Shown here: positions 1 to 20,311 of the stretch, in pieces
How positions within the stretch are numbered: position 1 is the first letter of the stretch
How the letters are laid out: each line of letters opens with the position of its first letter
IMG/VR virus record: IMGVR_UViG_3300021406_000192
Location: 1-30,574 of that record
Direction: 5' to 3' (one strand)
From: a virus
Length of the DNA stretch: 30,574 nucleotides
The notes under the pieces: generated by a model
The model's database searches: none
Told to the model about the DNA's origin: nothing
What the model saw: the letters and a program-made list of their open reading frames with translations, nothing else
Position numbers and translations under genes: made by a program

Positions 1-982
1 CGATTCGTGAGCGCTGGCCGAGCGGTGCAGGCGGCGTTTCCGTGGTGATCTCCGCATGCTTGCCGCCTTCCGTCACGCGGGCCTGGGCATCGATGGCGCG
101 CATAGCCGAACGCATCGCACGGATGTGGTTGGGTGTGGTGCCGCAACAGCCGCCGACGATCTGCGCTCCTGCAGCGATGGCCTTGCGAGCGAAACTGGCC
201 ATGTATTCGGGCGAACAGAGATAGATGTTGCGGCCTTCGATGGCGCGCGGCATGCCGGCGTTTGGCATCGCGGCCAGCGGCAGCGTGGTGGCAGTGCGCA
301 TGGCTTCGATCGCTGTCAGAACGGTGGAGGGACCGGTGGAGCAGTTGACCCCGATGGCTCCGGCGCCCCACTCGGTGAGCAGCGCGGCCGCCTGCTGTGG
401 CGACGAGCCGTCAAGGCAGTTGCTGTCGTCGTCAACCGTGACCATGACGAGGACAGGCAGGTTCGGTGCGGTCTCTTCGGCTGCGAGCAGGGCTTCTCGC
501 GCTTCGTTGAGCGCGGGCATAGTCTCGATGATCAGCATGTCCACGCCGCTATCGGCCAGGGCACGAATTTGTTCTGCAAAGGCGGCGCGCGCTTCATCCA
601 GCCCGGTCTTGCCTAATGGTTCAAGCCGGACGCCGAGAGGCCCGATCGATCCTGCGACATAGGCGGTCCCCGCCTGTTTTTCTTTAATATGCTCGACTGC
701 TTGCCGAGCCAGTTTGACGCCCGCGGCGTTGATCTCGGCCACCTTGGAGGCGAGGCCATGCCGGGTCAGGCGAAATTTGTTGGCGCCAAAGGTATTCGTT
801 TCGAGAATCTCCGCGCCGGCCTGGAGGTAATCCTCGTGGATGGAGAGGATGAGGTTGGGATCAGACAGGTTTAATTCGTCGTAACAGCGGTTGATGAAAA
901 CCCCGCGAGCGTAGAGCACTGTCCCCATGGCGCCATCGGCAAGCACGGGTCGGCTGGAGAAGATATCGGCAAACTGAGCCAT
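1..982 (-). CDS. Homocysteine S-methyltransferase (MetH N-terminal/YitJ type), partial
   Basis: The gene starts at the ATG at 982-980 and runs off the left edge of the window, so only about 327 residues are visible. The visible part is a homocysteine S-methyltransferase barrel: it opens MAQFADIF followed by LADGAMGTVLYARG, then has ETNTFGANKFRL, GSIGPLG, GVNCSTGP and GGCCGTTPNHIRAM. The Cys of GVNCS and the CC pair of GGCCGT are the family's three zinc ligands that activate homocysteine. After the barrel there is a Pro/Thr-rich stretch (TTETPPAPLG) that looks like a linker, so the protein probably continues into a second domain, for example the methylenetetrahydrofolate reductase of YitJ-type bifunctional enzymes or further MetH modules. 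It acts in methionine synthesis in the cytoplasm. It is a core metabolic gene and marks the chromosomal side of the junction. No SAM riboswitch is evident upstream. Confidence 0.9.
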   Translation of the reverse strand, partial: MAQFADIFSSRPVLADGAMGTVLYARGVFINRCYDELNLSDPNLILSIHEDYLQAGAEILETNTFGANKFRLTRHGLASKVAEINAAGVKLARQAVEHIKEKQAGTAYVAGSIGPLGVRLEPLGKTGLDEARAAFAEQIRALADSGVDMLIIETMPALNEAREALLAAEETAPNLPVLVMVTVDDDSNCLDGSSPQQAAALLTEWGAGAIGVNCSTGPSTVLTAIEAMRTATTLPLAAMPNAGMPRAIEGRNIYLCSPEYMASFARKAIAAGAQIVGGCCGTTPNHIRAMRSAMRAIDAQARVTEGGKHAEITTETPPAPLGQRSRI

Positions 983-1860: not shown

Positions 1861-2706
1861 TTACGCCGTCTGAGCGTGCTGAAGAGCCGCGAAACTCACA
1901 ATTGTTTGTTTCAATTGGGAATCAACCTCGTCGGCTATGGTCATCACGTCGATTAGGAGAAGACTGAAATCGACGACGTTCAGATTGGACTGTAGAGTAT
2001 TGAAAATGCTGACTTGCAAAATCCGGGACTCCTCGATAATCATCGGAATCGTATAGCCCTGAGAGAGGCGAATCTTTCCATGTTCAACGGCACCGTCCGA
2101 CACCTGTTTGGTACCAAGGCTTCGAGGCACACGTAACCGATGAACCAACTCTCGAATCAGCAACGGAAGGTGCCCCATTCGCTTATCGTGGCTTAGAACC
2201 AGATGGTTCAGTTCCACATCTTTTTCAACTCGCGAAAGCCAATCGGCGATTGTGGACTGGGATTCACGCTCCAGTATGGAGGCTACTCTTTCAGTGTTTG
2301 TGGCACGCCGCGTCCCGCGATTCTTCAATTTCTCGCGAATCAATTCAAGCAATTCCGGAATGGGCATAGGCTTCACCATGATTTCGTCTGCTTGTAAGAG
2401 TATGGCATCCATTGCCTCCTGCAATGCCGGATAGCCGGTAAACAAGAGCGTGACGGCATCCGGATGCTTATGGCGCATGGCACTGACGATGGTGAAGCCG
2501 TCACCTGCTCCGGGTAAGTGCAAGTCAGAAAGAAGAACATCGAACGTTTCTGTGGCGATAAGATGAATTGCATCAGCGACGTTTGCGGCTGTCTTCACGT
2601 CGAACTGGCTGAATTCCAGCACGGCCCTTAGCGATTCACGCACCGCATCGTTATCGTCTACCAGAAGAATCCTTGGATTCGCTGTTTTATCAAGAACTGT
2701 TTCCAC
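1861..2706 (-). CDS. Response regulator with C-terminal RsbRD-like domain
   Basis: The N-terminal half is a receiver domain. Counting from the GTG at 2706, it has the acidic pair Asp17/Asp18 (LLVDDND), the phospho-acceptor Asp61 (LLSDLHLP), Thr90 (LLFTGYP) and Lys112 (MVKPMP), all the residues needed for phosphotransfer. The rest (about 140-270) is helical, with W-x-RVEKDVEL, MGHLPLLIRELVHRL and EHGKIRLSQGY...IIEESRIL. This resembles the RsbRD N-terminal/sensor-kinase-associated domain (PF14361) rather than a DNA-binding output. The GTG is preferred over a TTG at 2721 because GGGAAG precedes it by eight bases. No kinase is present nearby. A role in stress or partner-switching signalling is inferred. 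It is either phage cargo or the last host gene before the prophage; its packed neighbours favour cargo. Confidence 0.8.
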   Translation of the reverse strand: METVLDKTANPRILLVDDNDAVRESLRAVLEFSQFDVKTAANVADAIHLIATETFDVLLSDLHLPGAGDGFTIVSAMRHKHPDAVTLLFTGYPALQEAMDAILLQADEIMVKPMPIPELLELIREKLKNRGTRRATNTERVASILERESQSTIADWLSRVEKDVELNHLVLSHDKRMGHLPLLIRELVHRLRVPRSLGTKQVSDGAVEHGKIRLSQGYTIPMIIEESRILQVSIFNTLQSNLNVVDFSLLLIDVMTIADEVDSQLKQTIVSFAALQHAQTA

Positions 2707-2855
2707 GGTAGTGCTTCCCAACGAGGCGGACGAAAGCTATCCGCATCTTCATATAGCCTAGGCGGCGTTCAAGGGAAAAGCAGAGCGGTATTGCTCACTC
2801 GGCGTCAAATTGAGAGGGCTGAGGACATCGTTGCTCTCAGGTCGTCCCACGGTAC

Positions 2856-3926: not shown

Positions 3927-4805
3927 TCACGGTTCTTTTGTGGTGTATATGCGATTGTCAGCGCAGTTGTGCCACATGTCGAACGTGCCTTGGAACCAAC
4001 CGCAGAACTCCGTAACTCTGACCTCTCCCTTGCCTAGATTTCGGTCACGATATTTGAATCGCACGAACAGGTACATCCTCAACTTCCCATCAAGAACCGT
4101 CTGAGCGGTAGCTGCCATTTGCACAATTTGTTCATCGGCACCCGGAAAGCTGAAGTAGTGTTTGGGCGTGTCACCGGGCTCGATTTCTACGCCATCGACG
4201 GCTGGAATCGCAGCATTAGGTGAATGCATCACGGCCTCAGCTTCCGCTTGTTGCTTTGGTGTGATTTCGCCTGTATTCAACATCATCGCAGTACGGTGTG
4301 TCATTGAAATCACCGGGATGGTGCCTCGGTTCGCGTAAGTTATATTGAGTACGAAGCCCCTTACATTTTGCGCGTTCTTCACAGGCTGACCGACGACACT
4401 GGTCACAACCAATCTGGACTGTTCCTGAGGCTGTGATGAATGACCGGGGTACGTTATGACTGGCGGACTCGGTACCTTGAACACAATAGGTGGTGGCTCA
4501 ATAGCCGCTGCCCTTGCCCGAATCTCGGACGGCTGATTCCAGAAAAGCTCATACGAGAACACAAATGCGGTCACTCCGAACCATAGAGCGAATGTGTCCC
4601 TCAGTTCGGACTTCCACTGCTTCTTTACGGCGTTCCACCGCTGCCTTTTTGGAGCTTGCCGTGCCTTACGAAACACCACAACTAGCAGCGGGATTAGGAA
4701 GATGAGCGTCCATCCAAGCCAGTTCGTACCCATGTCAGAGAACGTGGATTTCAATGCGGCAACCGCAAGCTGGCAGGTGAAGCATGTGGAATCCATGCTC
4801 TCCAT
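3927..4805 (-). CDS. Two-pass membrane protein with soluble C-terminal domain, unknown
   Basis: Encodes 292 residues from the ATG at 4805 (a second ATG at 4796 is also possible). Two membrane segments are clear: residues about 28-46 (NWLGWTLIFLIPLLVVVF) and 71-89 (TFALWFGVTAFVFSYELF), joined by a basic Lys/Arg-rich loop. After a Pro-rich stretch (about 100-125) a soluble region of some 165 residues has beta-rich character (RGFVLNITYANRGTIPV, MYLFVRFKYRDR) and ends in a conserved-looking EFCGWF...WHNCADNRIY with two Cys. I recall similar proteins of unknown function in Acidobacteriota, but this is memory, not a search. It lies in an accessory cluster beside the endolysin. Possible roles include cell-envelope modification or exclusion of other phages; neither is shown. 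Confidence 0.7.
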   Translation of the reverse strand: MESMDSTCFTCQLAVAALKSTFSDMGTNWLGWTLIFLIPLLVVVFRKARQAPKRQRWNAVKKQWKSELRDTFALWFGVTAFVFSYELFWNQPSEIRARAAAIEPPPIVFKVPSPPVITYPGHSSQPQEQSRLVVTSVVGQPVKNAQNVRGFVLNITYANRGTIPVISMTHRTAMMLNTGEITPKQQAEAEAVMHSPNAAIPAVDGVEIEPGDTPKHYFSFPGADEQIVQMAATAQTVLDGKLRMYLFVRFKYRDRNLGKGEVRVTEFCGWFQGTFDMWHNCADNRIYTTKEP

Positions 4806-4821
4806 CTTCTCACTTAGTCTG

Positions 4822-4953
4822 TTAGGGGTGACGCAGTGACTGCGTATAAAAGGCTACCCAGACCCCTAGGGCTAAAATTACAATAACTATCCAGTCAAAG
4901 AAATCGAGGTTCTTCAAGCGTGTTTTCCAACCGGAGATGGGCACAGTTCGCAT
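4822..4953 (-). CDS. Possible 43-aa membrane protein
   Basis: Starting at the ATG at 4953, with AGGA five bases upstream, this frame encodes 43 residues. A basic amphipathic start (MRTVPISGWKTRLKNLD) is followed by a membrane segment (FFDWIVIVILALGVWVAFY). It ends 16 bases before the two-pass membrane protein gene and could lead that operon. Its first 34 bases overlap, on the opposite strand, the start of the gene at 4920, so one of the two starts may be wrong. Longer starts up to 5010 overlap more and are less likely. Confidence 0.4.
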   Translation of the reverse strand: MRTVPISGWKTRLKNLDFFDWIVIVILALGVWVAFYTQSLRHP

Positions 4954-5339
4954 TGTTCCTGAACCTCGTCGGAACATTCGCCCTATTCTACTCATTTCAG
5001 GCGACCTCATCCAAATTTAGACTTATGACGGTTTCGTACGAGAACGCTGGGGGCAAGGGAGAACGGTCAGCACTCTGCGTATATGGGCACAATATGATGA
5101 CAGCTACTTCGGAAGGCGGCGGTTCCATTGGCTTCGGCCCATGCCCGGACTGGGAGCACTCCAAGGCAGCAGCAGTGGTGAACATTGAACACCCGTTTCT
5201 CGTGACATTTGGATTCTTAGCTACCCTATTTGGGTTCGCAATTCAGTTCTTAGCCATCCCCAATCCCAAGACAATCGCGCAAATCAGGAAAGAACTAAAG
5301 TTCGCACAAGCGGAAGAGAGATTACGACGTTCTCAGTAG
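4920..5339 (+). CDS. Two-pass membrane protein, unknown
   Basis: Encodes 139 residues from a GTG at 4920 with GAGG ten bases upstream. Hydrophobic segments at about 8-27 (AQFALFLNLVGTFALFYSF) and 92-112 (FLVTFGFLATLFGFAIQFLA) flank a polar, Gly-rich loop (about 35-88) with two Cys (Cys53, Cys75). The C-terminus is a charged helix (IRKELKFAQAEERLRRS). The topology suggests the loop is outside and both ends are inside, so the two Cys could form a disulfide; this is inference. It is convergent with the endolysin and the two genes abut exactly at 5339/5340. Holin-like function is possible in principle, but the loop is long for a holin. No family is recognised. Confidence 0.6.
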   Translation: MFSNRRWAQFALFLNLVGTFALFYSFQATSSKFRLMTVSYENAGGKGERSALCVYGHNMMTATSEGGGSIGFGPCPDWEHSKAAAVVNIEHPFLVTFGFLATLFGFAIQFLAIPNPKTIAQIRKELKFAQAEERLRRSQ

Positions 5340-5795
5340 TCACGCGGCCTGTGCCTGTGTGTTCCCGCCCTTCCACAACTGAAACTCAGCCTCTCTCCGC
5401 GTCTTCAGTCCAGCGACTACAACTCCTCCGCTGTGGTCCCACAACAGTAGTTGCTGTCCAGCCGCGTCGTACTGTCCAGCGTTCAAGTCTCTGAGCAGCG
5501 TTGACGACGCAAGACGACCACCGCCCAGATTGAAAACAAAGTCCACCAGCGCGTCGAACTGTCCCTGACTGAGCGGAACCTTCACGAGACGCTGAACGAC
5601 GCTCTCAGCGACTGCCACGTCCGCCATCAGCAAGCTGGTCGCTTGTGTGACTGTCACATCAGACGGGAAGGACTCTCCAGACTGAAGCTTGTGTCCGTAC
5701 GCCACTGTCTTGAATCCTGCAACGTCGCTGTAGACGGACGCGGAGAATCCTTCAGACTTCTTTATGAGTTCTATTCCTGCTGTACTTGTATGCAT
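5340..5795 (-). CDS. Phage endolysin, GH24 T4-type lysozyme
   Basis: Encodes 151 residues, the usual size for a phage lysozyme. The catalytic triad spacing of the T4 family is intact: Glu15 (KKSEGF), Asp24 (YSDVAG) and Thr30 (FKTVAYGH), that is E-x8-D-x5-T. The substrate-cleft region QFDALVDFVFNLGGG and the C-terminal motif LKTRREAEFQLW are also typical. It cleaves the glycan strands of peptidoglycan to release virions. There is no signal peptide or signal-anchor, so release to the periplasm needs a holin. It is separated from the upstream secreted-protein gene by a strong intrinsic terminator at 5815-5841, so it is either expressed by read-through or from a promoter between the terminator and its start, where none is obvious in the short gap. 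Confidence 0.93.
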   Translation of the reverse strand: MHTSTAGIELIKKSEGFSASVYSDVAGFKTVAYGHKLQSGESFPSDVTVTQATSLLMADVAVAESVVQRLVKVPLSQGQFDALVDFVFNLGGGRLASSTLLRDLNAGQYDAAGQQLLLWDHSGGVVVAGLKTRREAEFQLWKGGNTQAQAA

Positions 5796-5814
5796 AAACT
5801 TTCCCCTTGAAATG

Positions 5815-5841
5815 GAAAAAGCCGGGACGCCAATCCCGGCT
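5815..5841 (-). terminator. Intrinsic terminator upstream of the endolysin
   Basis: On the minus strand AGCCGGGA and TCCCGGCT form an 8-bp GC-rich stem with a six-base loop, followed directly by TTTT. It ends transcripts coming from the secreted-protein gene at 5922-6413, just before the endolysin start at 5795. Confidence 0.8.
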
Positions 5842-5921
5842 CAACCGTGATGCCCTCGAAAATTACTACGAACCTTGACTTCTTAATGTCTAATACTGAG
5901 TTTTTGGGCAGATTTACTGAT

Positions 5922-6413
5922 TTATTTTCCTGCGGCTGTCACACCTGTTGGCGGGTTAAGCGTTGTCAGTCCAGCGGCCAAGGTCGTGCTGGCCGGAGCC
6001 GATACGAGTGCTGCACCATTCACGTCAAATCCAGCAGCGGTGACCGTGATGGTGTACGTTCCGAAGGCAACACCAGCCGTGGGCGTCCATGTAGTCGTGA
6101 GCGTCCCCGGTGGAATTTGCCCTGTGCCAAAACCTGCGGCCTGTGAAAACACCACGGTGCCGTTGAGGGTGATGGACACGTTGAACCCGTTGTAGCAGTT
6201 GGAAATCGTACCGTTGCTAGGGCAAGCTGGAGCATTCGGTGTGTATGACCAACTGGTGACGATGGAGCTATAGGCTGAGCCAGCGGGTGCCAGCATCGCA
6301 ACTGGACGAGTGACTACGAGCGACACGTGTGTAGCTGGACGAGTCTGTTGCGCCAGCAGAGAGAGTGAACTGAACAGGACGACAGCGAAGGCCGCGAACC
6401 ATAGTTTAGTCAT
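5922..6413 (-). CDS. Secreted beta-rich (Ig/FN3-like) protein with Sec signal peptide
   Basis: Read from the ATG at 6413, preceded by GGAG about ten bases upstream, it encodes 163 residues. The first 20 are a textbook signal peptide (MTKLWFAAFAVVLFSSLSLLA, probable cut before QQTRP). The mature part is Thr/Ser/Gly/Pro-rich with alternating beta-strand patterns (FNVSITLNGTVVF, FGTYTITVTAAGFDV), one Cys pair (PACPSNGTISNCYNG), and ends in PPTGVTAAGK, the kind of start found in fibronectin-like domains. The frame is open further upstream to 6773, but that part is not protein-like. An exported adhesin-like protein inside a lysis region is unusual. It could be a moron acting at the cell surface or a virion decoration protein. 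No named family. Confidence 0.7.
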   Translation of the reverse strand: MTKLWFAAFAVVLFSSLSLLAQQTRPATHVSLVVTRPVAMLAPAGSAYSSIVTSWSYTPNAPACPSNGTISNCYNGFNVSITLNGTVVFSQAAGFGTGQIPPGTLTTTWTPTAGVAFGTYTITVTAAGFDVNGAALVSAPASTTLAAGLTTLNPPTGVTAAGK

Positions 6414-8637: not shown

Positions 8638-11589
8638 TTAGTCGATGTAGATTTCGTAGATTTCAAGCACGCTGGAGCCGCCCCCCGGCGACGAACCGAC
8701 CGTGATTGTGGACGCTCCGTTGACGCTCACTGTGCTGAGATTCGTCCCGGATGGAATCGTGTATGTGTATGTTGTCGAGGCCGTCGTTGCGGTAACGCCC
8801 ATCAGTGATGCTGTTGTTCCACCGATGGTGACGGACATTGCAACGCTTCCGGAAGTTGAGCCGCTGATGGTTGCAGCGGCGACAACGGAAAGTGTCATTG
8901 CTGAACTAATCGTCGTAGACGGAAACCCACTGAAGGTAGCGGAACCGTTTGCACCGTAGTAGCTGAACGTCGGTCCACCCATGCCGGAGGTCGTGATAGT
9001 CCACCAGCTAGAAGGAACAGCAGCAGCCGTCGTGATGTTGTTGTCGTAAGCAGCGGTCGGTGTCACCAGCGTAGTCGCGCCCGTGTTCGTGTACGCGCTC
9101 GGCTCGTACCGGACTGAGTAGCTCGGAGTCGTGATGCTTCCAATGAGGAAGTACCCGGCCTTGTTCAGAAAGTCCGAAGTGTTCTGTGTTGCGATAGGAG
9201 TGATAGAGCCGCCAGCAAAAGTCGCGTCCACATAGTACACGTAATACAACTGGCTCTGATTCAAGCTGGAGATGATGTTCGGACTCGGAGTGCATGACGC
9301 TGACAGAATCCCAGTAGTGGCCGTGAAGTTGGCAATTGCAATCGTTGCAGTGCCATCGCTTAGTGCTGATGCTGTCAGCGTCCCCGCTGGTGCAACGGGA
9401 ATCCCGCTATACGATGTCGTGCTCAGAGAGTTGCCGACAGTGACGTTCGCGAGAATCCACGCCGATGGAACTCCAGCGGCGTTAACCGCACGGACTTGGA
9501 CGTTGTAGGATGCTCCGTCATTTACGTTCGGGATGAAGACACTCGCATTGCTCGGGTCAATCTTCGCCAGCCCTGTCCACGTCGAAGCACCAGAAAGCTG
9601 GTACTGGCATTCAAGATGGCCTCCATAGACGACGTTCGCATCATTGGGTTGATTCCAACGCACGTAGATTGAGTTGTGGACGCTCCCATCTGCACCTGTC
9701 GTGATTGTCGATGGATACGTGATGCCGTTGATGACAGCACCCGGTCCGGAGTACGCAACCACATCTTCCGGTGGAGAGCACACACGAATCCCGACGTTGT
9801 TCGGAATGATGCTGTCCGTGATGGATAACTCTTCCGTTGGAGACCATGAATAGATGGCCGAGTTTGCCGCTGAGTTCGAACCGTCCACTTGAGCAAGGTC
9901 GAGTTCAACGATAGGCTTGCCGTTGTCATCGTACACAAGACCGACATGCAAGACCTCAAATGGCTCATCGACCCAGTTATAACGAGCAATGCTGACGCCT
10001 ATCACGTCTGTGACAGTTGCCTGATACGCGCTCAGGTCACACTGCAAGTGCATTCTGTACTGATAACGCTGACGCATCAACTGAATCTTTGCGAGGCGTT
10101 GAGCTACAGCACTCACGTTCGTGCAAGGCAAGTCGAGATTCCAGACAAGAAGTTCGTTCCCGTCTTCTACGAGCCATGTATTTGTGACGTAACCGTGCAG
10201 ACTGTCTTGCTGATAGAGCGGATAGTCGCTCGGCTGATAGTTGTTCGCAGGGTTGACGTATGTACCTTTCACACTGTTACAGGCTTCCGTCACCGAGAGC
10301 CGCGTGTCCAGCTTGATAGCACCAACAATGTTCTTCTCATTCAGATAGAGACTCGGCGCGACGTAAGCACCGGGAATGATGCTCCAGACGCCACCCTGCA
10401 CGGCTAACCGCCCCGCGCAGCTTGTCAACATCCTCTGAATATTCGTTCCGCGTCCTGTGTCCAGCGTGAGGTTCGTGTCGCAGGAATATTGCGGAACAGT
10501 GCCACCAACGGCCAGAGAGAGAGTTTCGTCACAGACGTTCGCAGCAGCAATCAGGTTGTTCTGGTCAATCGTTGAACCAATCGCGAGACCGAAGCCGCCA
10601 CGAAGACGCGGCTGACACATGTAGTCCGCGATGCAGAGAGCAGAATTCTCCGTGTAGCCGCGTGTACCAGTGCGAGGGTCAAGGATGTCGTTCTTTCCCT
10701 TGACGATGAAAGACAAGTTGGTGGGGTACGACGGGAAGTAAGCCGCATCGTAGCCCATCTGGATATAGACGAGCGCGTGACCGTAGCACACATCCGTCGA
10801 TAGCCACGTCAGAGGAGATGAGGAGCCGATTTGTGCGGCCAGCAAGGTCGGGAAAGTTGCCGTCTGATTCCCGTTTTGAAATTCAACGTGGACTTTGTTC
10901 GAGTAGTCGGGGAGACAAGTCTCACACTTGCCACTGCTGCTGGTGCCGTTAGCACCGCCGCATTGATATTCCCACGTCGTCAAATCGGACGGATTCGGGA
11001 GCCACATCGTCCAGACGCCATTATATGTGTTGTCTGCAACACCGGAGACGACCATCGTCTGACCATTGAAGGACGAGGCGAAGCCTCCACTCACTACCAT
11101 CGTGACGAGACCACCGGAGCGGCTGATTGATGTGATGTTACACGTCGTTTGAGTCGGTGAAGCGGACTGCCAGATTGCCGTGTTCGGGTCAGTGCTCCAC
11201 TGAGCAACAAGATTCAGCGTCTGTCCATCAAGACGAACTTCAAGCAACGCATCACACGGATGACACGCGAGTGCAAAGACTCTGTGCCATTGCTTGTCAT
11301 TTGATGTGCTCCCGCCGCTTCCGGTAATCGCGTTAGTCTCACTAAATATCTCGACTCCGGGAACCTTCATCGTGCCGTAGATGTAGTTGTAAGCCGCTAC
11401 AGGGTTAGTCGTCGCGACACCCTGACCCGGTTGCTTTTCCAGCATCTCAGCGATGCCGGTCATGACTTCACCAGCACCAGCGATAATGAGAGCGGCACCG
11501 AACGGAGCACCGACGCCGGTCGCCGCGAGTACAGCACCCGCAGCAATCTCTAGTCCACCGATGACGGTGCTTATAATTCCACGTGACAT
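8638..11589 (-). CDS. Tail tip/receptor-binding protein, J-like
   Basis: Encodes 983 residues from the ATG at 11589 with GAAGGA upstream. A Gly/Ala-rich hydrophobic N-terminus (about 10-45) leads into a tip-protein core with the NPVAAYNYIYGTMKVPGV and HRVFALACH motifs, conserved among lambda J-type hub proteins, in which a beta-rich segment (about 150-225) appears inserted. Residues about 380-590 carry the GRGTNIQRMLTSC...VQGGVW and later hub domains. A fibronectin type III-like domain spans about 607-718 (IYVRWNQP...YNVQVRAVNAAG). The last 250 residues are Ser/Thr/Gly-rich beta structure, probably the receptor-contacting part. It closes the tail end and selects the host. It follows the NlpC/P60-like gene, the usual lambda-like order K-I-J. 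Confidence 0.85.
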   Translation of the reverse strand: MSRGIISTVIGGLEIAAGAVLAATGVGAPFGAALIIAGAGEVMTGIAEMLEKQPGQGVATTNPVAAYNYIYGTMKVPGVEIFSETNAITGSGGSTSNDKQWHRVFALACHPCDALLEVRLDGQTLNLVAQWSTDPNTAIWQSASPTQTTCNITSISRSGGLVTMVVSGGFASSFNGQTMVVSGVADNTYNGVWTMWLPNPSDLTTWEYQCGGANGTSSSGKCETCLPDYSNKVHVEFQNGNQTATFPTLLAAQIGSSSPLTWLSTDVCYGHALVYIQMGYDAAYFPSYPTNLSFIVKGKNDILDPRTGTRGYTENSALCIADYMCQPRLRGGFGLAIGSTIDQNNLIAAANVCDETLSLAVGGTVPQYSCDTNLTLDTGRGTNIQRMLTSCAGRLAVQGGVWSIIPGAYVAPSLYLNEKNIVGAIKLDTRLSVTEACNSVKGTYVNPANNYQPSDYPLYQQDSLHGYVTNTWLVEDGNELLVWNLDLPCTNVSAVAQRLAKIQLMRQRYQYRMHLQCDLSAYQATVTDVIGVSIARYNWVDEPFEVLHVGLVYDDNGKPIVELDLAQVDGSNSAANSAIYSWSPTEELSITDSIIPNNVGIRVCSPPEDVVAYSGPGAVINGITYPSTITTGADGSVHNSIYVRWNQPNDANVVYGGHLECQYQLSGASTWTGLAKIDPSNASVFIPNVNDGASYNVQVRAVNAAGVPSAWILANVTVGNSLSTTSYSGIPVAPAGTLTASALSDGTATIAIANFTATTGILSASCTPSPNIISSLNQSQLYYVYYVDATFAGGSITPIATQNTSDFLNKAGYFLIGSITTPSYSVRYEPSAYTNTGATTLVTPTAAYDNNITTAAAVPSSWWTITTSGMGGPTFSYYGANGSATFSGFPSTTISSAMTLSVVAAATISGSTSGSVAMSVTIGGTTASLMGVTATTASTTYTYTIPSGTNLSTVSVNGASTITVGSSPGGGSSVLEIYEIYID

Positions 11590-13332: not shown

Positions 13333-13356
13333 GAGGCCACTCCGGAGAGCGGCCTC
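13333..13356 (-). terminator. Stem-loop after the fibre gene
   Basis: GAGGCC (13333-13338) pairs with GGCCTC (13351-13356), and the loop itself contains the palindrome CTCCGGAG. On the minus strand the stem is followed by TTTCATT, a weak U-tract, so partial termination between the fibre and the distal tail genes is likely. Confidence 0.5.
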
Positions 13357-13382: not shown

Positions 13383-16300
13383 TTACTGAATGACGCGGAC
13401 GTTGTACGTGCTTGCGGTTGGAGTTCCCGCAACAATTGCACACACCTTGACGGTTACGGTTCCAGACGCGGACACGTAGCCATTCCATACGTTGCCGTCG
13501 CCGGGGTATGTACTTGGAGTTGCTGCAACAGCCATGCTCGTAGTAGCCGCTGAGACGCTCACAGTCCCGCTCGAACACGCACCAGCAGCAAGAGCAGAGC
13601 CGCCGATGCTTCCTGTGGTTCCGGATAGAGGTAGCAGTGACTTAACGAATTGGTCAGTGGCGATGTTCACCGAGTTGTCGGTCGTCGGCTGCGTGATTGC
13701 AGTGGCACCGTTCGCGTTGCCGCCGATGGAGTTCGAGGGCATCGTGTTGTTTGGAAAATTGATAATAGTATGGCCGTTGATTGAATCTGTAAATGAAAAG
13801 TTATAGTTTCCAGTTCCAAGCAAACCCCAATACCAGTAACGAGAGCTACCTACACCAAGGCCATAATCCGTGTAGCTGCCGTTATTGTTGCCAAATAGAT
13901 TCACTTGAACGCTGCCCGTTGAGTTTGAAATCTGGTGGTTCACCATCGTTCCGCAGTCAGCTTGCAGACCTGTGGAGTTTGTATAGCACGGGAAGTCGCC
14001 AGCATTTGTTCCGGTGCTAGGCCCAAGCACTATAGGACTTCCACCAACAGTGGAGCCAACGGGTAAAGTTACCGCAGGAATTAAATCAATGAACGCAACG
14101 TAAATAGTAAAGGCACTTTCATTGTTGAACTGGAAATAACCCGTCTGTCCGGTGAAGTTGAGGGGTATAGAGTAGGCTGCTAGTGATGTTGTGCAGGAGA
14201 AGCTCTGCGTTGCGCCATATCCGTTACTCAAGGCTCCTCTGGCCGAGAATGTGGTTTGCCCACCCGGACAACTCGCCATGAATTGCAACGTCATAGGTAC
14301 TGCTGGAAAGGCTTCACCGACAAACATATTTCCCGGCGTGATGGTCGAGTAGTCGGCCTGTTGGAAGGAAGACACTCCAGAAGTCGGGACACCGGGAGCG
14401 TTGAGAATGATGTCCTCCCCGAAAGGTGCAGTAGTGTCAGCGACTATATAAGTCGAATATGGAGACGATGGAGCGAAATTAACCTCTTGTGGCGTAATGA
14501 AAAGGTCGTTCCACTTATAAGGAACGCTAGGATTCCCATCACGTAAGAAGTCAGCACTGACGCTTTTCAAGAGTTCAGGATGACCCTTGATGTAGTTCGC
14601 CGCAACGTTCTGCGTGGTTTGGTATCCATCAAGTGGACTGGCGTTATAGCTTCCATAAATCAGGTTGCCGCGCCCTCCATCTGTCGGCATAAGATACGCA
14701 TTGCGTATCATTCCGTTGACTGTGTTGTTGTTTCCATTGACAGCTAGACCACCACCGCCAACAAAGCAGTTGCACGTGCTGGAATTTGTATCCAGAATCC
14801 CCGGCATGTTAGTTGCGCCAATTTCGGCACTGATTGTGTTACCTGTACCTGTAATTCTCCAGCCCACTGCTCCTGTTGGGGGAGTGTTCCAAGATTCGAA
14901 TTCCACTGAGTTAAGATTCGCAGAACCGAAACCGTCCGCCCATTGGTTGTTTAGATTTAGGAATTGCGGACCGGAAAGTGCTGTGACTTCGACATCTTCC
15001 CAACGCATCTCACCACCGTTATAGCTAATCCACGGATAGACATCGGTGGTAAACAGGCCATGCTTCCACGTTTCAAAGTCGCCCGAGTTGCTTGCCTGAA
15101 AAGAGTTCAGTTCTGATGTACCCTGCACGACAGCGAAATATGAACTAAAAAAGTTGAAGTTGCGTACGTCGAGTCCATACAAACCCCACTGCCCCTGTAC
15201 GTAAAGGCTACAAGAGTTGTTGCTGTTGCCGTTCGTCTGTTGAAAGCCCACGTTGAGCAGTATCGGGTAAAGACTTCCTACACTCTGTGATGGATGCGCC
15301 CAATCCGACTCCAGAGCGTCCATATCATCCATGGCAATTGCGCAGTTGCCAATGGTCGTAGTGACTGGCAAACCGAGAAGTGAGATGTAGGAATGTGCGT
15401 TCGTGACTGTTGTGGAAGCTGATGCGGCCAATGTGATTACCTGCCACGATGGAGCGGACGGTCCGATTGCCCATCCGGGTGTAACGCTGGCAATCGTCGT
15501 TGTCAGATTACCCATGACAGTGACAGTTGCACCCGCTGAGTGCGTAGCGGCAGTTGTTCCAGCCTGAGCACGGTAGACAGTAATATTCGAAATACCATTG
15601 GATTGTGTTCCAACATACATCACGATTTCAGAATCAATCTTCAGGTAACCAAATATGGTAGGCCATGAACTTGTTGTCACTCCTGTGATGCTGACGTTTG
15701 TCGCTGTTGTTGAAGTGATTGCAGTGTTCAGTGTCGTTGTCGTAACAGTTGCACCAGCACCACCAACAACAATCGCTTGCCCAACATCTCCCGGTGCGAC
15801 AGATGCATTTGTTGTTGTGAATGCGGCACTTCCTGAAGTCATTCCACCATCGTCAAACCAGCGACCCGGACGGCGATGCGGAAAGCTACCCGCTGTGCTG
15901 TTGTCCACATAGAGTGTGATGTCCTGAATCTTCCAGCCGGGATTCCACGTGAACGTTCCCGAAGCAGTGCTCGGGTCGGGTACGTGAAGCACATCTTGAC
16001 CGGGCTTGCCTTTAATCGTCACGGTGTATTGCTGTGGTGAGTTCGTTCCCGGCGCACCGGGCTGTCCGATAAGCGAGACCCCTGTCCACAGGAGTGTGCT
16101 GGTCAGATAGCAACCGCCCGGAGGCTTCGGAAAGTAGAGGGCAGCAGCAGTCGCATTGCCTACTGCGTAAGCTTGTGCCGCGGTCTGTGCTGCCATAATT
16201 GCGTTGTGGTCATCAGTCGCACAATCGCCAACAGCACCATAAGCCATGACGTTGATTAGAGTGTTGACAGAAGCGTTCACTGTCGCAGCTTTCACATTTC

Positions 16301-17351
16301 CAGTGACAACGAGACCATTTGAACCATCAGCGGCTACACCAGCATAGTTACCGACAACTTGAGCGTGGGTTGTGTCTGTGCTGCCAAATGTTGAACCGGA
16401 CGTATAGGAAGCTGTGACGACATACGCAGTGCCGCTGTATGAGTAGACATCGTTCACGGCGTACGCTGTTGAAGCAGCCCACGCACCGCGAGAGTTCATC
16501 GTTCCGGAACCTGCGGGACCGACTGGACCTGTTGCACCAGTCGCACCTGTTGCGCCTGTCGTACCCGCTGGACCTGTTGCGCCTGTCGGGCCTTGCGGAA
16601 CGGCGAAGTTTAGAACAGCAGCACCAGATGAACCTGAGTTCGTCACGGAAGCACTTGAATTTGGTAACCCGGTTGTGGTTGTTCCAACGTTGACTGTAGC
16701 TGCTGCTCCTTGTGGAATTGCGAAGTTCAAAACAGCGGCAGCGGATGAACCTGAGTTCGTTACTGTTGCGCTTGAGCCGGGTGCTTCCGTCGTGGTGGAG
16801 CCAACGTTGACTGTTGCTGCTGTGCCTGTTGCGCCCGTGTCACCCTTTGGAATACCGCAATTGAGCAAAGCAGGACCAGAGCCAGTGATAGTGCAGGAAG
16901 CACCGCTTCCGGGAGCAAGCGTCGTGACAGTACCCATCGTCAGGGCGGAGACAGGCAGTGTCGCCAAGTCCGGGTCATAGCTGTCCAGACTCCAAGAGGA
17001 GCCTGTAATCTGCGTCATCCCGTAGTCCCTGATGATGGCGTTCGTTGTGCGATTCTGAGCAGTGATGTGGTAGTACGTGCCAGTCGGATTAGGGACAACG
17101 CTCAGACCGGACTGGAGCACACCGTTGGATACGACGCCACAGACGGGAGTCGTGACCACTTGGTCGGAGCCGACGCGGAAACCAGTCGGCGTGTTCGTTG
17201 CATCGACAGGCTGGAAGCAGAGCTTCGCCGCAGGTACAGGATGCACGAACGCATCCGTGACGCTGGACGCGGAGATTGATGTTGACGACTGAGCGTTAGC
17301 AACGCCAACCGCGAAAAGGATAGTCAGAACTGTAAATAATTTACGAAGCAT
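13383..17351 (-). CDS. Modular tail fibre with Sec signal peptide, collagen-like region and pectate-lyase-like fold
   Basis: Starts at the ATG at 17351, which overlaps the previous stop as TAATG (an upstream start at 17471 lies in that gene), and encodes 1322 residues. Residues 1-20 (MLRKLFTVLTILFAVGVANA) form a clear signal peptide with an ANA cut site. Then come a small N-terminal domain (about 30-135), three related blocks ending in IPKG/IPQG/VPQG (139-254), a collagen-like GPTGATG stretch (255-282), a carbohydrate-binding-like motif (about 291-323, AYAVNDVYSYSGTAYVV) and, from about 365, NVMAYGAVGDCATDD, the start of a pectate-lyase-3 type beta-helix as in tailspike depolymerases. The C-terminal 500 residues are beta-rich. 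It probably binds or degrades surface polysaccharide. A cleavable export signal is unexpected, because fibres assemble in the cytoplasm. Confidence 0.8.
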   Translation of the reverse strand: MLRKLFTVLTILFAVGVANAQSSTSISASSVTDAFVHPVPAAKLCFQPVDATNTPTGFRVGSDQVVTTPVCGVVSNGVLQSGLSVVPNPTGTYYHITAQNRTTNAIIRDYGMTQITGSSWSLDSYDPDLATLPVSALTMGTVTTLAPGSGASCTITGSGPALLNCGIPKGDTGATGTAATVNVGSTTTEAPGSSATVTNSGSSAAAVLNFAIPQGAAATVNVGTTTTGLPNSSASVTNSGSSGAAVLNFAVPQGPTGATGPAGTTGATGATGATGPVGPAGSGTMNSRGAWAASTAYAVNDVYSYSGTAYVVTASYTSGSTFGSTDTTHAQVVGNYAGVAADGSNGLVVTGNVKAATVNASVNTLINVMAYGAVGDCATDDHNAIMAAQTAAQAYAVGNATAAALYFPKPPGGCYLTSTLLWTGVSLIGQPGAPGTNSPQQYTVTIKGKPGQDVLHVPDPSTASGTFTWNPGWKIQDITLYVDNSTAGSFPHRRPGRWFDDGGMTSGSAAFTTTNASVAPGDVGQAIVVGGAGATVTTTTLNTAITSTTATNVSITGVTTSSWPTIFGYLKIDSEIVMYVGTQSNGISNITVYRAQAGTTAATHSAGATVTVMGNLTTTIASVTPGWAIGPSAPSWQVITLAASASTTVTNAHSYISLLGLPVTTTIGNCAIAMDDMDALESDWAHPSQSVGSLYPILLNVGFQQTNGNSNNSCSLYVQGQWGLYGLDVRNFNFFSSYFAVVQGTSELNSFQASNSGDFETWKHGLFTTDVYPWISYNGGEMRWEDVEVTALSGPQFLNLNNQWADGFGSANLNSVEFESWNTPPTGAVGWRITGTGNTISAEIGATNMPGILDTNSSTCNCFVGGGGLAVNGNNNTVNGMIRNAYLMPTDGGRGNLIYGSYNASPLDGYQTTQNVAANYIKGHPELLKSVSADFLRDGNPSVPYKWNDLFITPQEVNFAPSSPYSTYIVADTTAPFGEDIILNAPGVPTSGVSSFQQADYSTITPGNMFVGEAFPAVPMTLQFMASCPGGQTTFSARGALSNGYGATQSFSCTTSLAAYSIPLNFTGQTGYFQFNNESAFTIYVAFIDLIPAVTLPVGSTVGGSPIVLGPSTGTNAGDFPCYTNSTGLQADCGTMVNHQISNSTGSVQVNLFGNNNGSYTDYGLGVGSSRYWYWGLLGTGNYNFSFTDSINGHTIINFPNNTMPSNSIGGNANGATAITQPTTDNSVNIATDQFVKSLLPLSGTTGSIGGSALAAGACSSGTVSVSAATTSMAVAATPSTYPGDGNVWNGYVSASGTVTVKVCAIVAGTPTASTYNVRVIQ
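16506..16937 (-). repeat. Internal repeats of the fibre gene
   Basis: Three copies of a roughly 35-residue block (TTxAPGSxAxxTxSGxxxAxLNxxIPxG) at 16590-16937, followed by a collagen-like Gly-x-Thr/Ala tract at 16506-16589. The last two blocks are also close at the nucleotide level. Such repeats are recombination points that vary fibre length. Confidence 0.8.
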
Positions 17352-17743
17352 TAGGAGTCCGCCTCGGCGGTGAAGATTGCCGCCCATGTTGTAGAAGTAG
17401 GTGATGGAGTTAGAGAGAACTGACCGAACGTGCCGAGGGGTTGAATCTGCTTTCCAGACTGCGAGTCCCACAGAACAGCGGAGTACGTTGCAGCGGGATT
17501 GTCAGGACTGTCCGTTGTCGAGTCGATAGTGACAGCGGGAATGACGAGAGAGCCGCTCGACACGCTACACGCATACGACTGGTAGAACGTGCCGATAGTC
17601 TGAGAGAGATAAATGTTGCTCTGCGGGTACAGAGTTCCGCTCTCCGCTGTGAAGCTGGAGTTTGTATATATACGAAGCTGAACTCCGGACGTGTTTCCCT
17701 GCCATCCGGGAATCGTTACGGATGCGATTGTGATTGTTGCCAT
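17351..17743 (-). CDS. Small tail-associated beta-rich protein, unknown
   Basis: Encodes 130 residues from the ATG at 17743. The sequence is beta-strand-rich (ITIASVTIPGWQG, YSAVLWDSQSGKQIQPLGTFG), with no signal peptide or membrane segment. Its stop codon overlaps the start of the fibre gene (TAATG), so it is translated with it and may be an adaptor or chaperone for the fibre, or a short accessory baseplate protein. It follows the tape measure gene by 12 bases. I recognise no named family. Confidence 0.7.
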   Translation of the reverse strand: MATITIASVTIPGWQGNTSGVQLRIYTNSSFTAESGTLYPQSNIYLSQTIGTFYQSYACSVSSGSLVIPAVTIDSTTDSPDNPAATYSAVLWDSQSGKQIQPLGTFGQFSLTPSPTSTTWAAIFTAEADS

Positions 17744-17755
17744 AATCTATGTCCT

Positions 17756-20311
17756 TTATCCACGCGGTACACGTCGTTGACGGTCAACTATCTTGGCCTG
17801 TGCTTGCGTGACAGCGTGAGCATTGCTCGACGCGATAGCACGAGCGACGTTCGCTTGTGTAAGAGCAGGGTCGGTACCGCGTGCATCAATGTTGAGCACC
17901 TGACCGGCGTTACTGATGTCCTTGTTCGGGACTACGTGAGAGCCACCGGGGAGGTATACATTCTCCGGACCAAGCTCACCGACCGGGTAGACGCCACCGT
18001 ATGTGACATCGCCTCCCGTCGCGTATCCGCCGCCACTGAAGATTCCACCGGAACCGAAGAGTCGGCCACCGAAGAGGCTACTCATCTGGTCTGAATCATT
18101 CAGCGTGGACATCAGGCCGTTAGTGCCACCAGCACCGGCAAACATTGAGGAGCCGATACCGCTCGTGATGCTACCCATTCCCCCAAGGATTCTGGAGAGC
18201 ATGTTCTGTCCATATCCCGCGTTTGATAGAGCATTCTTGACGCCGGAGCCTTCTCCCTTGGAGTGCTCCGGGCCGGAAAACATGCTCATGAGACCGGAGA
18301 CGGTGCCCATTACACCGGGCATAACCGTGCTTCCGTTCTTAGAGAACCACTGTCCGACAGGGGAATTCTTGATTGTGTCTTCGAAGCTGCTGACTCCGGG
18401 AATTGCAGAGAACGGTGAGCTACCGGAACCGGAGCCACCCTTCACTGATGAGCCAGCGACGTGGACGTTCAGTGCTCCATCTGTTGCTGACAGCTTGAGG
18501 TCGCTGAGCTTCCCAGTGCTACCGGGCTTCTTACCCGTCATCAGTCCTTCCGCCCACTGGAGGCCAACCTTGGCGAGTGACTTCTCGGAGTTCTGAAACA
18601 CTTGATGGAAGTTCGTCTTGTCGCCGAACATGGCGTTGACAAACTGGTCATTCAATCCGTCCAGTGTGTGCTCCATTACAGAGGCGATTTTCTGAGAGAT
18701 GTTCTGAGCACCCTGACGAATGTGGTCGAACATCTGGTCAGCAGCACTCTCCGTTTCAAGTGCATCCTGCATCTGTTGAGCACGATGTGCCGAGTTCAAC
18801 TGTGCAATCTGCGCGTTCAGTTGCTGCTGAGCAAGCACGTTCTTTGCACGCTCATCATTAGTGAGGAGAGCGTCGGGAGAGTTCTCAGCCTGAAGCTGTG
18901 CTAACTCATCCCGCAATACTTTTAGGGACGCGGTGAACGCAGCGTCATGTGCAGCCGCGTTCTCCAACGCGGCGGTGTGAGCGTTGATTTGTCCTGTTGC
19001 AAGTTCATATTTCGTCGTAGCTTCGGTGAGCGAAGCGTTCATCTTTACTTGCTGCTCAGCGAGTCGGCCACCAACCTCGGTCTGACGTTGCTGCGTCTCC
19101 GGTGAGACATTGCCAGCCGTGATTGGCATAGGCAACATCTCAATTGTGGACTGACGAATCTTTTCAAACTGCTTCGACAGTTGCTCCGACGATTGGGCGA
19201 ACTTCTCCAACGCGGAGTTGTACGCTCCCGTTCCGTTGTGTAGCTCCTTAAGCTTTGACTCCCAGAATGCACGCTCCTGTGCGACTGACATACCATACAG
19301 GGTTTTCTCACGAGCGAAGTCAGCCTCAATCGCCTTCAGACGCTTCGCATCTTCCTGTTCGAGTGCGGCGTTCGCATCCTTCGTTTGCTGCAATCCTGTC
19401 AGCTTGCTTTGCAGCGTGCCGACTTGTTGAGTGTTGCTCGTGACCGACAGCAGACCGGAAATGTTCCTGTCTGCCTGTGATGACGCTTCGTACTCAACAC
19501 GAGACGAGCTATGGTCGAGAGAAGTGCCGTTGGCCTGAAGCTGAGCAAGAATATTATGTGAATCAGCAATGATAGGAGCTAACGCAGCGCGTGCTTCCTG
19601 CAACGCTTGCTGGCGAAGCTGCGTCGGGTCACCCTTCGTGTAGCCGTTGTCAATGTCTGAGAGCTTGAGTTGAAGTTCTTCTACGACCTTCGCGGTCTGT
19701 GTGCCACCAGTCTGATGGAGAAGCAGTTGTGAGAGAGTACCGGATTCCTCACCCTTCACAGCTTCCTGAATCTGCTTTACTACTGCATCAATTCTGTCTC
19801 CGAGCTTGTCCGCTTCAACACGTGCTTCAGCGATAGCCTCGGCCAACTTGTTTTCCGGCTTGTGCTCAAGCTTCGCAATCGCGTTTTCGAGCTTTACCTT
19901 AGTCAGTTCAAGGTCGTCGTTCTGAGTAGTGATGGACGTGTGAAGAGATGTCCACGCGGTCTTATTCTTTGTAGCGGCTTCCTCGTTCTTTTTGATGAAC
20001 TCTTGAAGCTTCTCACCGGCCTTTACAACGATGTCGATGAGCGCAAACACGGCAACAGCGTTGAACGCTGCTGACATCGCCGCACTGACTCCGGGGAGAC
20101 CTGCCACAAAGGTACGCAAATGGCGAGGAAGGACAACACCGATTTGCTCACCGAGGAGAGCAATGGAGCCCTTCGCTTCCTCTGTGCTCTTACGCATCTC
20201 TTGCGAGAACCTACGAGACTCATTAGTCGCTTCGCCGAGAGCAGCCTTGAACTTCGCAGTGCTTAGCTGTAGCTCGGCATATATGGCCGCGACTTTTGCC
20301 TGATTAGCCAA
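17756..20311 (-). CDS. Tape measure protein
   Basis: Encodes 851 residues from a TTG at 20311, preceded by AAAGGA, and overlaps the end of the T frame by eight bases. Features are those of a tape measure: a short N-terminal motif (YAELQLSTAKFKAALGEA), a hydrophobic stretch (about 68-96), long charged coiled-coil regions (about 100-560, rich in Gln, Glu, Lys, Ala), a second hydrophobic Gly/Ser/Met-rich region (about 630-770) and a Gly-rich C-terminal part (FGSGGIFSGGGYATGG). It sets tail length and is ejected ahead of the DNA. At about 0.15 nm per residue the predicted tail is near 130 nm (general relation, not measured). No lytic-transglycosylase or peptidase domain is seen. It lies after the G/T chaperone gene, as expected. 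Confidence 0.9.
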   Translation of the reverse strand: MANQAKVAAIYAELQLSTAKFKAALGEATNESRRFSQEMRKSTEEAKGSIALLGEQIGVVLPRHLRTFVAGLPGVSAAMSAAFNAVAVFALIDIVVKAGEKLQEFIKKNEEAATKNKTAWTSLHTSITTQNDDLELTKVKLENAIAKLEHKPENKLAEAIAEARVEADKLGDRIDAVVKQIQEAVKGEESGTLSQLLLHQTGGTQTAKVVEELQLKLSDIDNGYTKGDPTQLRQQALQEARAALAPIIADSHNILAQLQANGTSLDHSSSRVEYEASSQADRNISGLLSVTSNTQQVGTLQSKLTGLQQTKDANAALEQEDAKRLKAIEADFAREKTLYGMSVAQERAFWESKLKELHNGTGAYNSALEKFAQSSEQLSKQFEKIRQSTIEMLPMPITAGNVSPETQQRQTEVGGRLAEQQVKMNASLTEATTKYELATGQINAHTAALENAAAHDAAFTASLKVLRDELAQLQAENSPDALLTNDERAKNVLAQQQLNAQIAQLNSAHRAQQMQDALETESAADQMFDHIRQGAQNISQKIASVMEHTLDGLNDQFVNAMFGDKTNFHQVFQNSEKSLAKVGLQWAEGLMTGKKPGSTGKLSDLKLSATDGALNVHVAGSSVKGGSGSGSSPFSAIPGVSSFEDTIKNSPVGQWFSKNGSTVMPGVMGTVSGLMSMFSGPEHSKGEGSGVKNALSNAGYGQNMLSRILGGMGSITSGIGSSMFAGAGGTNGLMSTLNDSDQMSSLFGGRLFGSGGIFSGGGYATGGDVTYGGVYPVGELGPENVYLPGGSHVVPNKDISNAGQVLNIDARGTDPALTQANVARAIASSNAHAVTQAQAKIVDRQRRVPRG

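What the first reader, a model, noticed from the sequence alone, without database searches (positions are those of the whole stretch)
13383..17351. Tail fibre encoded with a cleavable Sec signal peptide
The fibre starts with a textbook signal peptide (MLRKLFTVLTILFAVGVANA, ANA cut site). The start is fixed by a TAATG overlap with the previous gene, so the signal is not an artefact of a wrong start. Fibres assemble in the cytoplasm, so export would put a polysaccharide-binding or degrading protein on or outside the lysogen. It may therefore act as a secreted depolymerase or adhesin for the host as well as, or instead of, a virion fibre.
Basis: partly seen in the sequence, partly recalled or inferred. 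Interest (0 to 1): 0.65.

Follow-up and report, generated by a model that had tools for sequence, protein, structure and literature searches.

The report
Phage tail fibres with export signals
A tail-fibre gene of a soil-bacterium virus begins with a real export signal. The signal is kept across a whole family of related viruses, and unrelated lab-isolated viruses of the same bacteria carry similar ones, so these fibres are probably folded outside the cytoplasm, which textbook phage assembly does not include.

Summary
The fibre (13383-17351, minus strand, 1322 aa) starts MLRKLFTVLTILFAVGVANA|Q, a textbook Sec/SPase I signal, overlapping the upstream stop by 1 nt. All of about 20 distinct homologues from IMG/VR contigs and an Edaphobacter prophage carry an equivalent leader (16 of 20 pass a strict rule; 11 of 245 neighbouring genes do). 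Most sit at the same place, between tape measure and Dit. A homologous sister group at that place starts exactly at the mature domain: no signal, and no conserved cysteine pair. In signal-bearing fibres a second cysteine pair is kept or lost together (8 both, 7 neither, 0 single), and mature cysteine counts are even in 22 of 25 proteins (controls 32 of 84). This points to disulfides formed outside the cytoplasm. Unrelated isolated acidobacterial phages Tunturi 1/2 and 4 also carry signal-bearing fibre or spike genes, unremarked in their paper's main text. The N-domain resembles fibre and minor-tail attachment domains. Best reading: a virion fibre exported, cleaved and oxidised in the periplasm, joining particles at lysis. 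Export is strongly supported; virion incorporation is inferred. No SignalP run and no proteomics were available.

The parts
17292..17351 (-). Sec signal peptide of the fibre, residues 1-20 MLRKLFTVLTILFAVGVANA; predicted SPase I cut before Gln21
   Evidence: sequence; rule-based test and homologues
16947..17291 (-). mature N-terminal Ig-like attachment-type domain (residues 21-135), conserved across the family; Cys45-Cys71 pair
   Evidence: alignments A2-A4; AlphaFold2 pLDDT 84.7 (modelled on residues 21-177); Foldseek fibre/minor tail matches
16857..16895 (-). second cysteine pair Cys153/Cys165, kept or lost together across homologues
16503..16592 (-). collagen-like G-X-Y run, residues 254-283
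13629..16301 (-). variable body, residues 351-1241, with a YGAVGD..TDD motif recalled from beta-helix tailspikes; swapped between homologues
   Evidence: no significant Pfam or PDB sequence match
13386..13628 (-). C-terminal module (residues 1242-1322) with Cys1259/Cys1304; shared with L001, similar end in L009, L011, L012, L015
13383..17351 (-). whole fibre CDS, 1322 aa
   Evidence: PHROG 5073 tail fiber E 3e-11
17351..17743 (-). 130-aa gene upstream, no signal, conserved next to the fibre; stop overlaps the fibre start
17756..20311 (-). tail tape measure protein
   Evidence: PF09718
12645..13340 (-). distal tail protein (Dit)
   Evidence: PHROG 1302 E 8e-41
8638..11589 (-). central tail fibre J-like protein, no signal
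   Evidence: PHROG 5616/31

Best explanation
The gene encodes a tail fibre that is made as a Sec preprotein. The leader sends the chain through SecYEG, SPase I cuts after ANA, and the mature fibre (N-terminal attachment domain, collagen-like linker, variable body, C-terminal module) folds and forms disulfides in the diderm periplasm. At lysis it meets the released tails and binds them through its N-domain, as a late-added fibre. Shown here: the signal, its conservation, its clean presence or absence in front of a domain that exists without it in a sister group, cysteine pairing, synteny in the tail operon, and recurrence in unrelated isolated acidobacterial phages. Inferred: actual export, disulfides, virion incorporation, and attachment at lysis.
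For: Signal-type leader in all about 20 homologues, with stops fixing several starts. Synteny MTP-..-TMP-g130-fibre-Dit-gM-DUF6950-TalJ in about 17 contigs. The homologous sister group L062-L065 (hhalign prob 98.9, E 1.8e-17), also between TMP and Dit where that flank is held (L062-L064), begins at the domain with no leader and lacks the C45/C71 pair. C153/C165 co-occur 8 both, 7 neither, 0 single, interleaved on the tree. Mature cysteines are even in 22/25 non-redundant SP-fibres against 32/84 control tail proteins (Fisher 8e-6); in seven of the 19 family fibres the signal itself holds one Cys, and in six of these the count becomes even once the signal is removed. N-domain fold: cyanophage A-1(L) tail fibre (prob 0.99), Bxb1 tail tip, actinophage minor tail proteins. 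A relative ends in Peptidase_S74, the endosialidase/tail-fibre chaperone. Tunturi 1/2 gp12, gp13, gp14 'tail spike', gp17 and Tunturi 4 gp111, gp113, gp114 carry signals; mature Cys 20, 10, 20, 32 and 12, 8, 20.
Against: Known tailed-phage fibres assemble in the cytoplasm and no step is known that joins an exported fibre to a tail; lambda J, lambda Stf, T7 gp17 and Mu S lack signals. Virion incorporation has not been measured for any member. Foldseek matches to the PDB do not reach E 0.001. The SP/no-SP and C45/C71 association is a single event on the tree. Two complete fibres have odd mature cysteine counts, as does the small Tunturi gp16.
Confidence: 0.52

Rival explanations
1. Host-directed secreted adhesin or depolymerase: the prophage protein is exported and works on or outside the lysogen or infected cell and is not a virion part (the first reader's idea; compare lambda lom, a phage-encoded outer-membrane protein next to J).
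For: Export signal; collagen-like modular build; host secreted proteins share the shaft repeat; an SP homologue sits outside the late tail block in a Mu-like prophage (L048); second SP protein in this prophage at 5925-6413.
Against: Locked into the tail operon with attachment-type N-domain and no own promoter-like site; also in phages with lytic cycles (PMC11924767); Tunturi 1 would be left with few other fibre candidates.
Confidence: 0.22
2. Receptor masking: exported receptor-binding protein saturates receptors of the infected cell and its debris, blocking superinfection or loss of progeny.
For: A soluble receptor binder made late and exported would reach the envelope; T5 Llp (own knowledge) and T4 Spackle (PMC7650644) show phages export proteins against superinfection.
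Against: Periplasmic delivery does not by itself reach the outer surface; the N-domain is homologous to signal-less fibres at the same tail position.
Confidence: 0.12
3. The hydrophobic N-terminus is not a cleaved signal but an uncleaved membrane or tail-tip anchor of the fibre.
For: No cleavage was measured; hydrophobic N-termini do occur in virion proteins (own knowledge).
Against: Conserved A-x-A-type site and Gln at +1 in most members, signal lengths 18-28, cysteine pairing that fits the cleaved protein.
Confidence: 0.08
4. Start-codon artefact or chance hydrophobic stretch.
For: A longer frame with GTG at 17471 exists; shuffles of this leader pass the rule 6.7% of the time.
Against: All homologues keep the leader and several have in-frame stops just before the ATG.
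Confidence: 0.02

Closest known systems
Tailed-phage tail fibres (lambda Stf, T7 gp17, Mu S)
   Same: Conserved N-terminal attachment-type domain, repetitive shaft, swapped distal part, gene in the tail operon
   Different: Those start directly at the attachment domain and carry no signal; this N-domain does not match PF08400 and shows no hhalign similarity to lambda Stf
Cyanophage A-1(L) tail fibre and Bxb1 tail-tip Ig-like proteins
   Same: Closest solved folds of the N-domain (prob 0.98-0.99)
   Different: E-values 0.02-0.08 only; no export signal known to me in these
T4 Spackle gp61.3
   Same: Phage protein with cleaved Sec signal and a periplasmic disulfide, acts on a tail protein (PMC7650644)
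   Different: Small lysozyme inhibitor, not a fibre
Lambda Lom
   Same: Phage protein annotated as outer host membrane protein, coded next to the tail gene J
   Different: Lambda J and Stf themselves are signal-less; Lom is not a fibre
Tunturi 1/2/4 fibre and spike genes (PP887698, PP885685, PP885687)
   Same: Signal-bearing fibre or spike genes, mostly even cysteine numbers, acidobacterial hosts
   Different: Not homologous to this fibre at the sensitivity used

Membership tests
Sec/SPase I preprotein | basic n-region, hydrophobic core, small residues at -3/-1 | tested here: met
Sec/SPase I preprotein | demonstrated export and cleavage | not testable with these tools
   no proteomics or reporter assay; SignalP not available
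Caudoviral tail fibre | position among tail genes | tested here: met
   between TMP and Dit in about 17 contigs
Caudoviral tail fibre | sequence or fold match to known fibres | tested here: met
   PHROG 5073 E 3e-11 over the linker; N-domain folds like fibre/minor tail domains; S74 domain in relative L006
Caudoviral tail fibre | present in virions | not testable with these tools
   no virion proteome; main text of PMC11924767 has no mention of mass spectrometry
PF08400 prophage tail fibre N-terminal (lambda Stf) | profile match | tested here: not met
   no match at E 10 while lambda Stf scores 2.7e-75
Tailspike depolymerase | lyase/hydrolase beta-helix family match | tested here: not met
   no Pfam match beyond weak collagen and CBM_5_12 and no PDB sequence match; only a YGAVGD..TDD motif
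Lysogenic-conversion moron (lom type) | own promoter and terminator outside the late operon | tested here: inconclusive
   no promoter-like site upstream of 17351; a terminator-like hairpin 13356-13333 follows; counts equal shuffles

The most novel reading that the evidence does not exclude
Acidobacterial tailed phages of at least three unrelated lineages build their adsorption fibres outside the cytoplasm: fibres are exported by Sec, disulfide-bonded in the periplasm, and attach to virions only when the cell lyses, an assembly branch not described for tailed phages.
Probability: 0.42. Interest if true: 0.87.

Novelty: new variant of a known kind. Interest (0 to 1): 0.7.

Why it matters
Fibre assembly in tailed phages is taught as wholly cytoplasmic. 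A conserved Sec signal with covarying cysteine pairs on fibres, recurring in unrelated acidobacterial phages, means either that fibres can be made in the periplasm and added at lysis, or that phages of this large soil phylum send fibre-like proteins to the host envelope. Either answer would be new to me and to the literature searched, and isolated phages with cultured hosts (Tunturi 1, 2, 4) make it testable at once. It also warns that gene callers can cut the signal off (Tunturi 4 gp111).

Tried and rejected
Start artefact: rejected from relatives' in-frame stops. Lysogen-only function: weakened by signals in fibre genes of phages with lytic cycles. Host requirement (all acidobacterial fibres need export): rejected, since Tunturi 3 and the L046/L062-L065 prophages have fibres without signals. 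Membership in PF08400 or the lambda Stf N-domain: tested, not met. Whole-protein search in GTDB contigs and in phage records: nothing. C-terminal module in phage records: no match. Tunturi 1 gp14 relatives in IMG/VR: none. PDB sequence search with body and N-domain profile: none. Raw cysteine content as an argument: dropped, because the J-like protein is richer in Cys; only pairing and parity were kept. Nine papers-library searches found no description of signal peptides on tailed-phage fibres, but most subscription journals are not held.

Full report
OBSERVATION. The window is an IMG/VR virus record of 30,574 bases. Its left end is host DNA: a homocysteine S-methyltransferase-like gene at 2-982, 85% identical to Acidobacteriota genomes, and a response regulator. 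So this is the edge of an integrated prophage of an acidobacterium. The late genes run leftward: terminase, portal, protease, capsid, connectors, major tail protein, tape measure (17756-20311), a 130-aa gene, the fibre (13383-17351), Dit, PHROG 2048 tail protein, DUF6950, J-like protein. The fibre starts MLRKLFTVLTILFAVGVANA|QSSTS, with the TAATG overlap as reported.

IS THE SIGNAL REAL? SignalP was not on hand, so I wrote a strict rule. It flags no fibre of lambda, T7 or Mu (1 of 65 genes in all). For this leader alone, shuffles pass 6.7% of the time, so the family is the real evidence. N-domain searches brought 22 IMG/VR loci, an Edaphobacter modestus prophage and a bog Rhodanobacteraceae contig. 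Every one has a leader with n-region, hydrophobic core and small residues near the cut, mostly followed by Gln. The leader itself diverges far more than the mature domain (window against L001), as expected for signals. In L006 and L023 the ATG follows an in-frame TAG directly, and in L012 the stop is one codon away, so the start is not in doubt.

SYNTENY AND SISTER GROUP. In about 17 contigs the order is major tail protein, two small genes, TMP, 130-aa gene, signal-bearing fibre, Dit, PHROG 2048 protein, DUF6950, J-like. In Edaphobacter the fibre lies after the J-like gene with three small fibre-like genes. A homologous fibre group (L046/L062, L063, L064, L065; hhalign prob 98.9) starts MPTGYTQV or the like directly at the mature domain; L062-L064 show it between TMP and Dit, and L065 ends before Dit. 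The leader is thus a clean addition to, or loss from, an attachment domain. On the tree the difference is one event of unknown direction.

CYSTEINES. The C45/C71 pair is present in nearly all signal-bearing members and absent in the signal-less group. The second pair, C153/C165, is both present in 8 and both absent in 7 of 15 core sequences, never single, with presence and absence interleaved among close relatives. Counting cysteines in the mature protein, 17 of 19 complete family fibres are even (15 of 17 non-redundant). With the Tunturi proteins below it is 22 of 25, against 32 of 84 for other cysteine-containing tail proteins of the same contigs, whose starts were not curated. In six of the seven family fibres whose signal holds a single cysteine, the count becomes even only when the signal is removed. 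Related sequences are not independent, so the p-values are rough, but disulfides formed outside the cytoplasm are the simplest reading.

STRUCTURE. AlphaFold2 on the 20-row alignment gives a beta domain (pLDDT 84.7). Its best PDB neighbours are the cyanophage A-1(L) tail fibre and Bxb1 tail-tip proteins, and in BFVD actinophage minor tail proteins. PDB matches have high probability but E above 0.01. It does not match PF08400 or the lambda Stf N-domain. The bodies differ between homologues; one family member ends in the S74 chaperone. The window body has a YGAVGD..TDD motif but no significant family match, so depolymerase activity is unproven.

ISOLATED PHAGES. PMC11924767 describes Tunturi 1-5, isolates on cultured Tunturiibacter, reported to show lytic cycles. 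In Tunturi 1 and 2, gp12, gp13, gp14 ('tail spike' / 'pectin lyase'), gp16 and gp17 ('virion structural') all begin with signals. In Tunturi 4, gp113 and gp114 do so, and gp111 does if its start is moved to the upstream TTG at 80076, where it becomes a paralogue of gp113. Tunturi 3 fibres have none; Tunturi 5 was not examined. The main text of the paper does not mention signal peptides. These proteins show no detectable homology to the window fibre, so the feature recurs in at least three lineages of acidobacterial phages, though not in all.

MECHANISM. Most likely: export, cleavage and oxidation in the periplasm, then attachment to tails at lysis. That T4 long tail fibres can be added to finished particles in vitro is my own knowledge and makes late addition physically plausible; T4 Spackle shows that a phage protein can be exported, cleaved and disulfide-bonded in the periplasm (PMC7650644). 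The late-operon position, absence of an own promoter-like site, attachment-type domain and occurrence in phages with lytic cycles weigh against them but do not exclude them.

LIMITS. No proteome, no SignalP, rule-based scoring, related sequences, and a papers library without most subscription journals or preprints.

Noticed in passing
window 5925-6413 (-): Second signal-bearing gene near the endolysin: MTKLWFAAFAVVLFSSLSLLAQQ..., 163 aa, weak MBG/Ig-like match and a close cysteine pair.
   Followed up: partly
window 2-982 and 1861-2721 (-): Host DNA: homocysteine S-methyltransferase-like gene (85% to Acidobacteriota) and a response regulator, so the record spans a prophage-host junction.
   Followed up: yes
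L073 (PP885687) 30076-33171: Tunturi 4 gp111 is probably annotated 119 codons too short; the TTG start restores a signal peptide and makes it a paralogue of gp113.
   Followed up: yes
L072 (PP887698) 4745-5947 (-): Tunturi 1 gp78 'tail protein' begins with a lipoprotein-type signal (LTGC), away from the structural block.
   Followed up: no
L015 9083-10267: A second signal-bearing protein (MTRLFTALLIGALMATCASA|QYGG) follows the fibre before Dit.
   Followed up: no
L026 4222-5304 and 6001-7521: Two signal-bearing paralogues of the N-domain on one viral contig, with a third leader-bearing gene between them.
   Followed up: partly
L048 5775-9704 (-) and L061 11611-14343: Divergent signal-bearing N-domain relatives near Mu-type transposition and early genes, in an Acidobacteriota genome and a Rhodanobacteraceae contig.
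   Followed up: partly
L049-L058: Acidobacteriota chromosomal secreted proteins (ATLVADAHVNS... domain with leader) share the collagen-type shaft repeat with these phage fibres.
   Followed up: no
window 13333-13356 (-): 10-bp GC-rich hairpin with a short T run between fibre and Dit; could be an attenuator.
   Followed up: no
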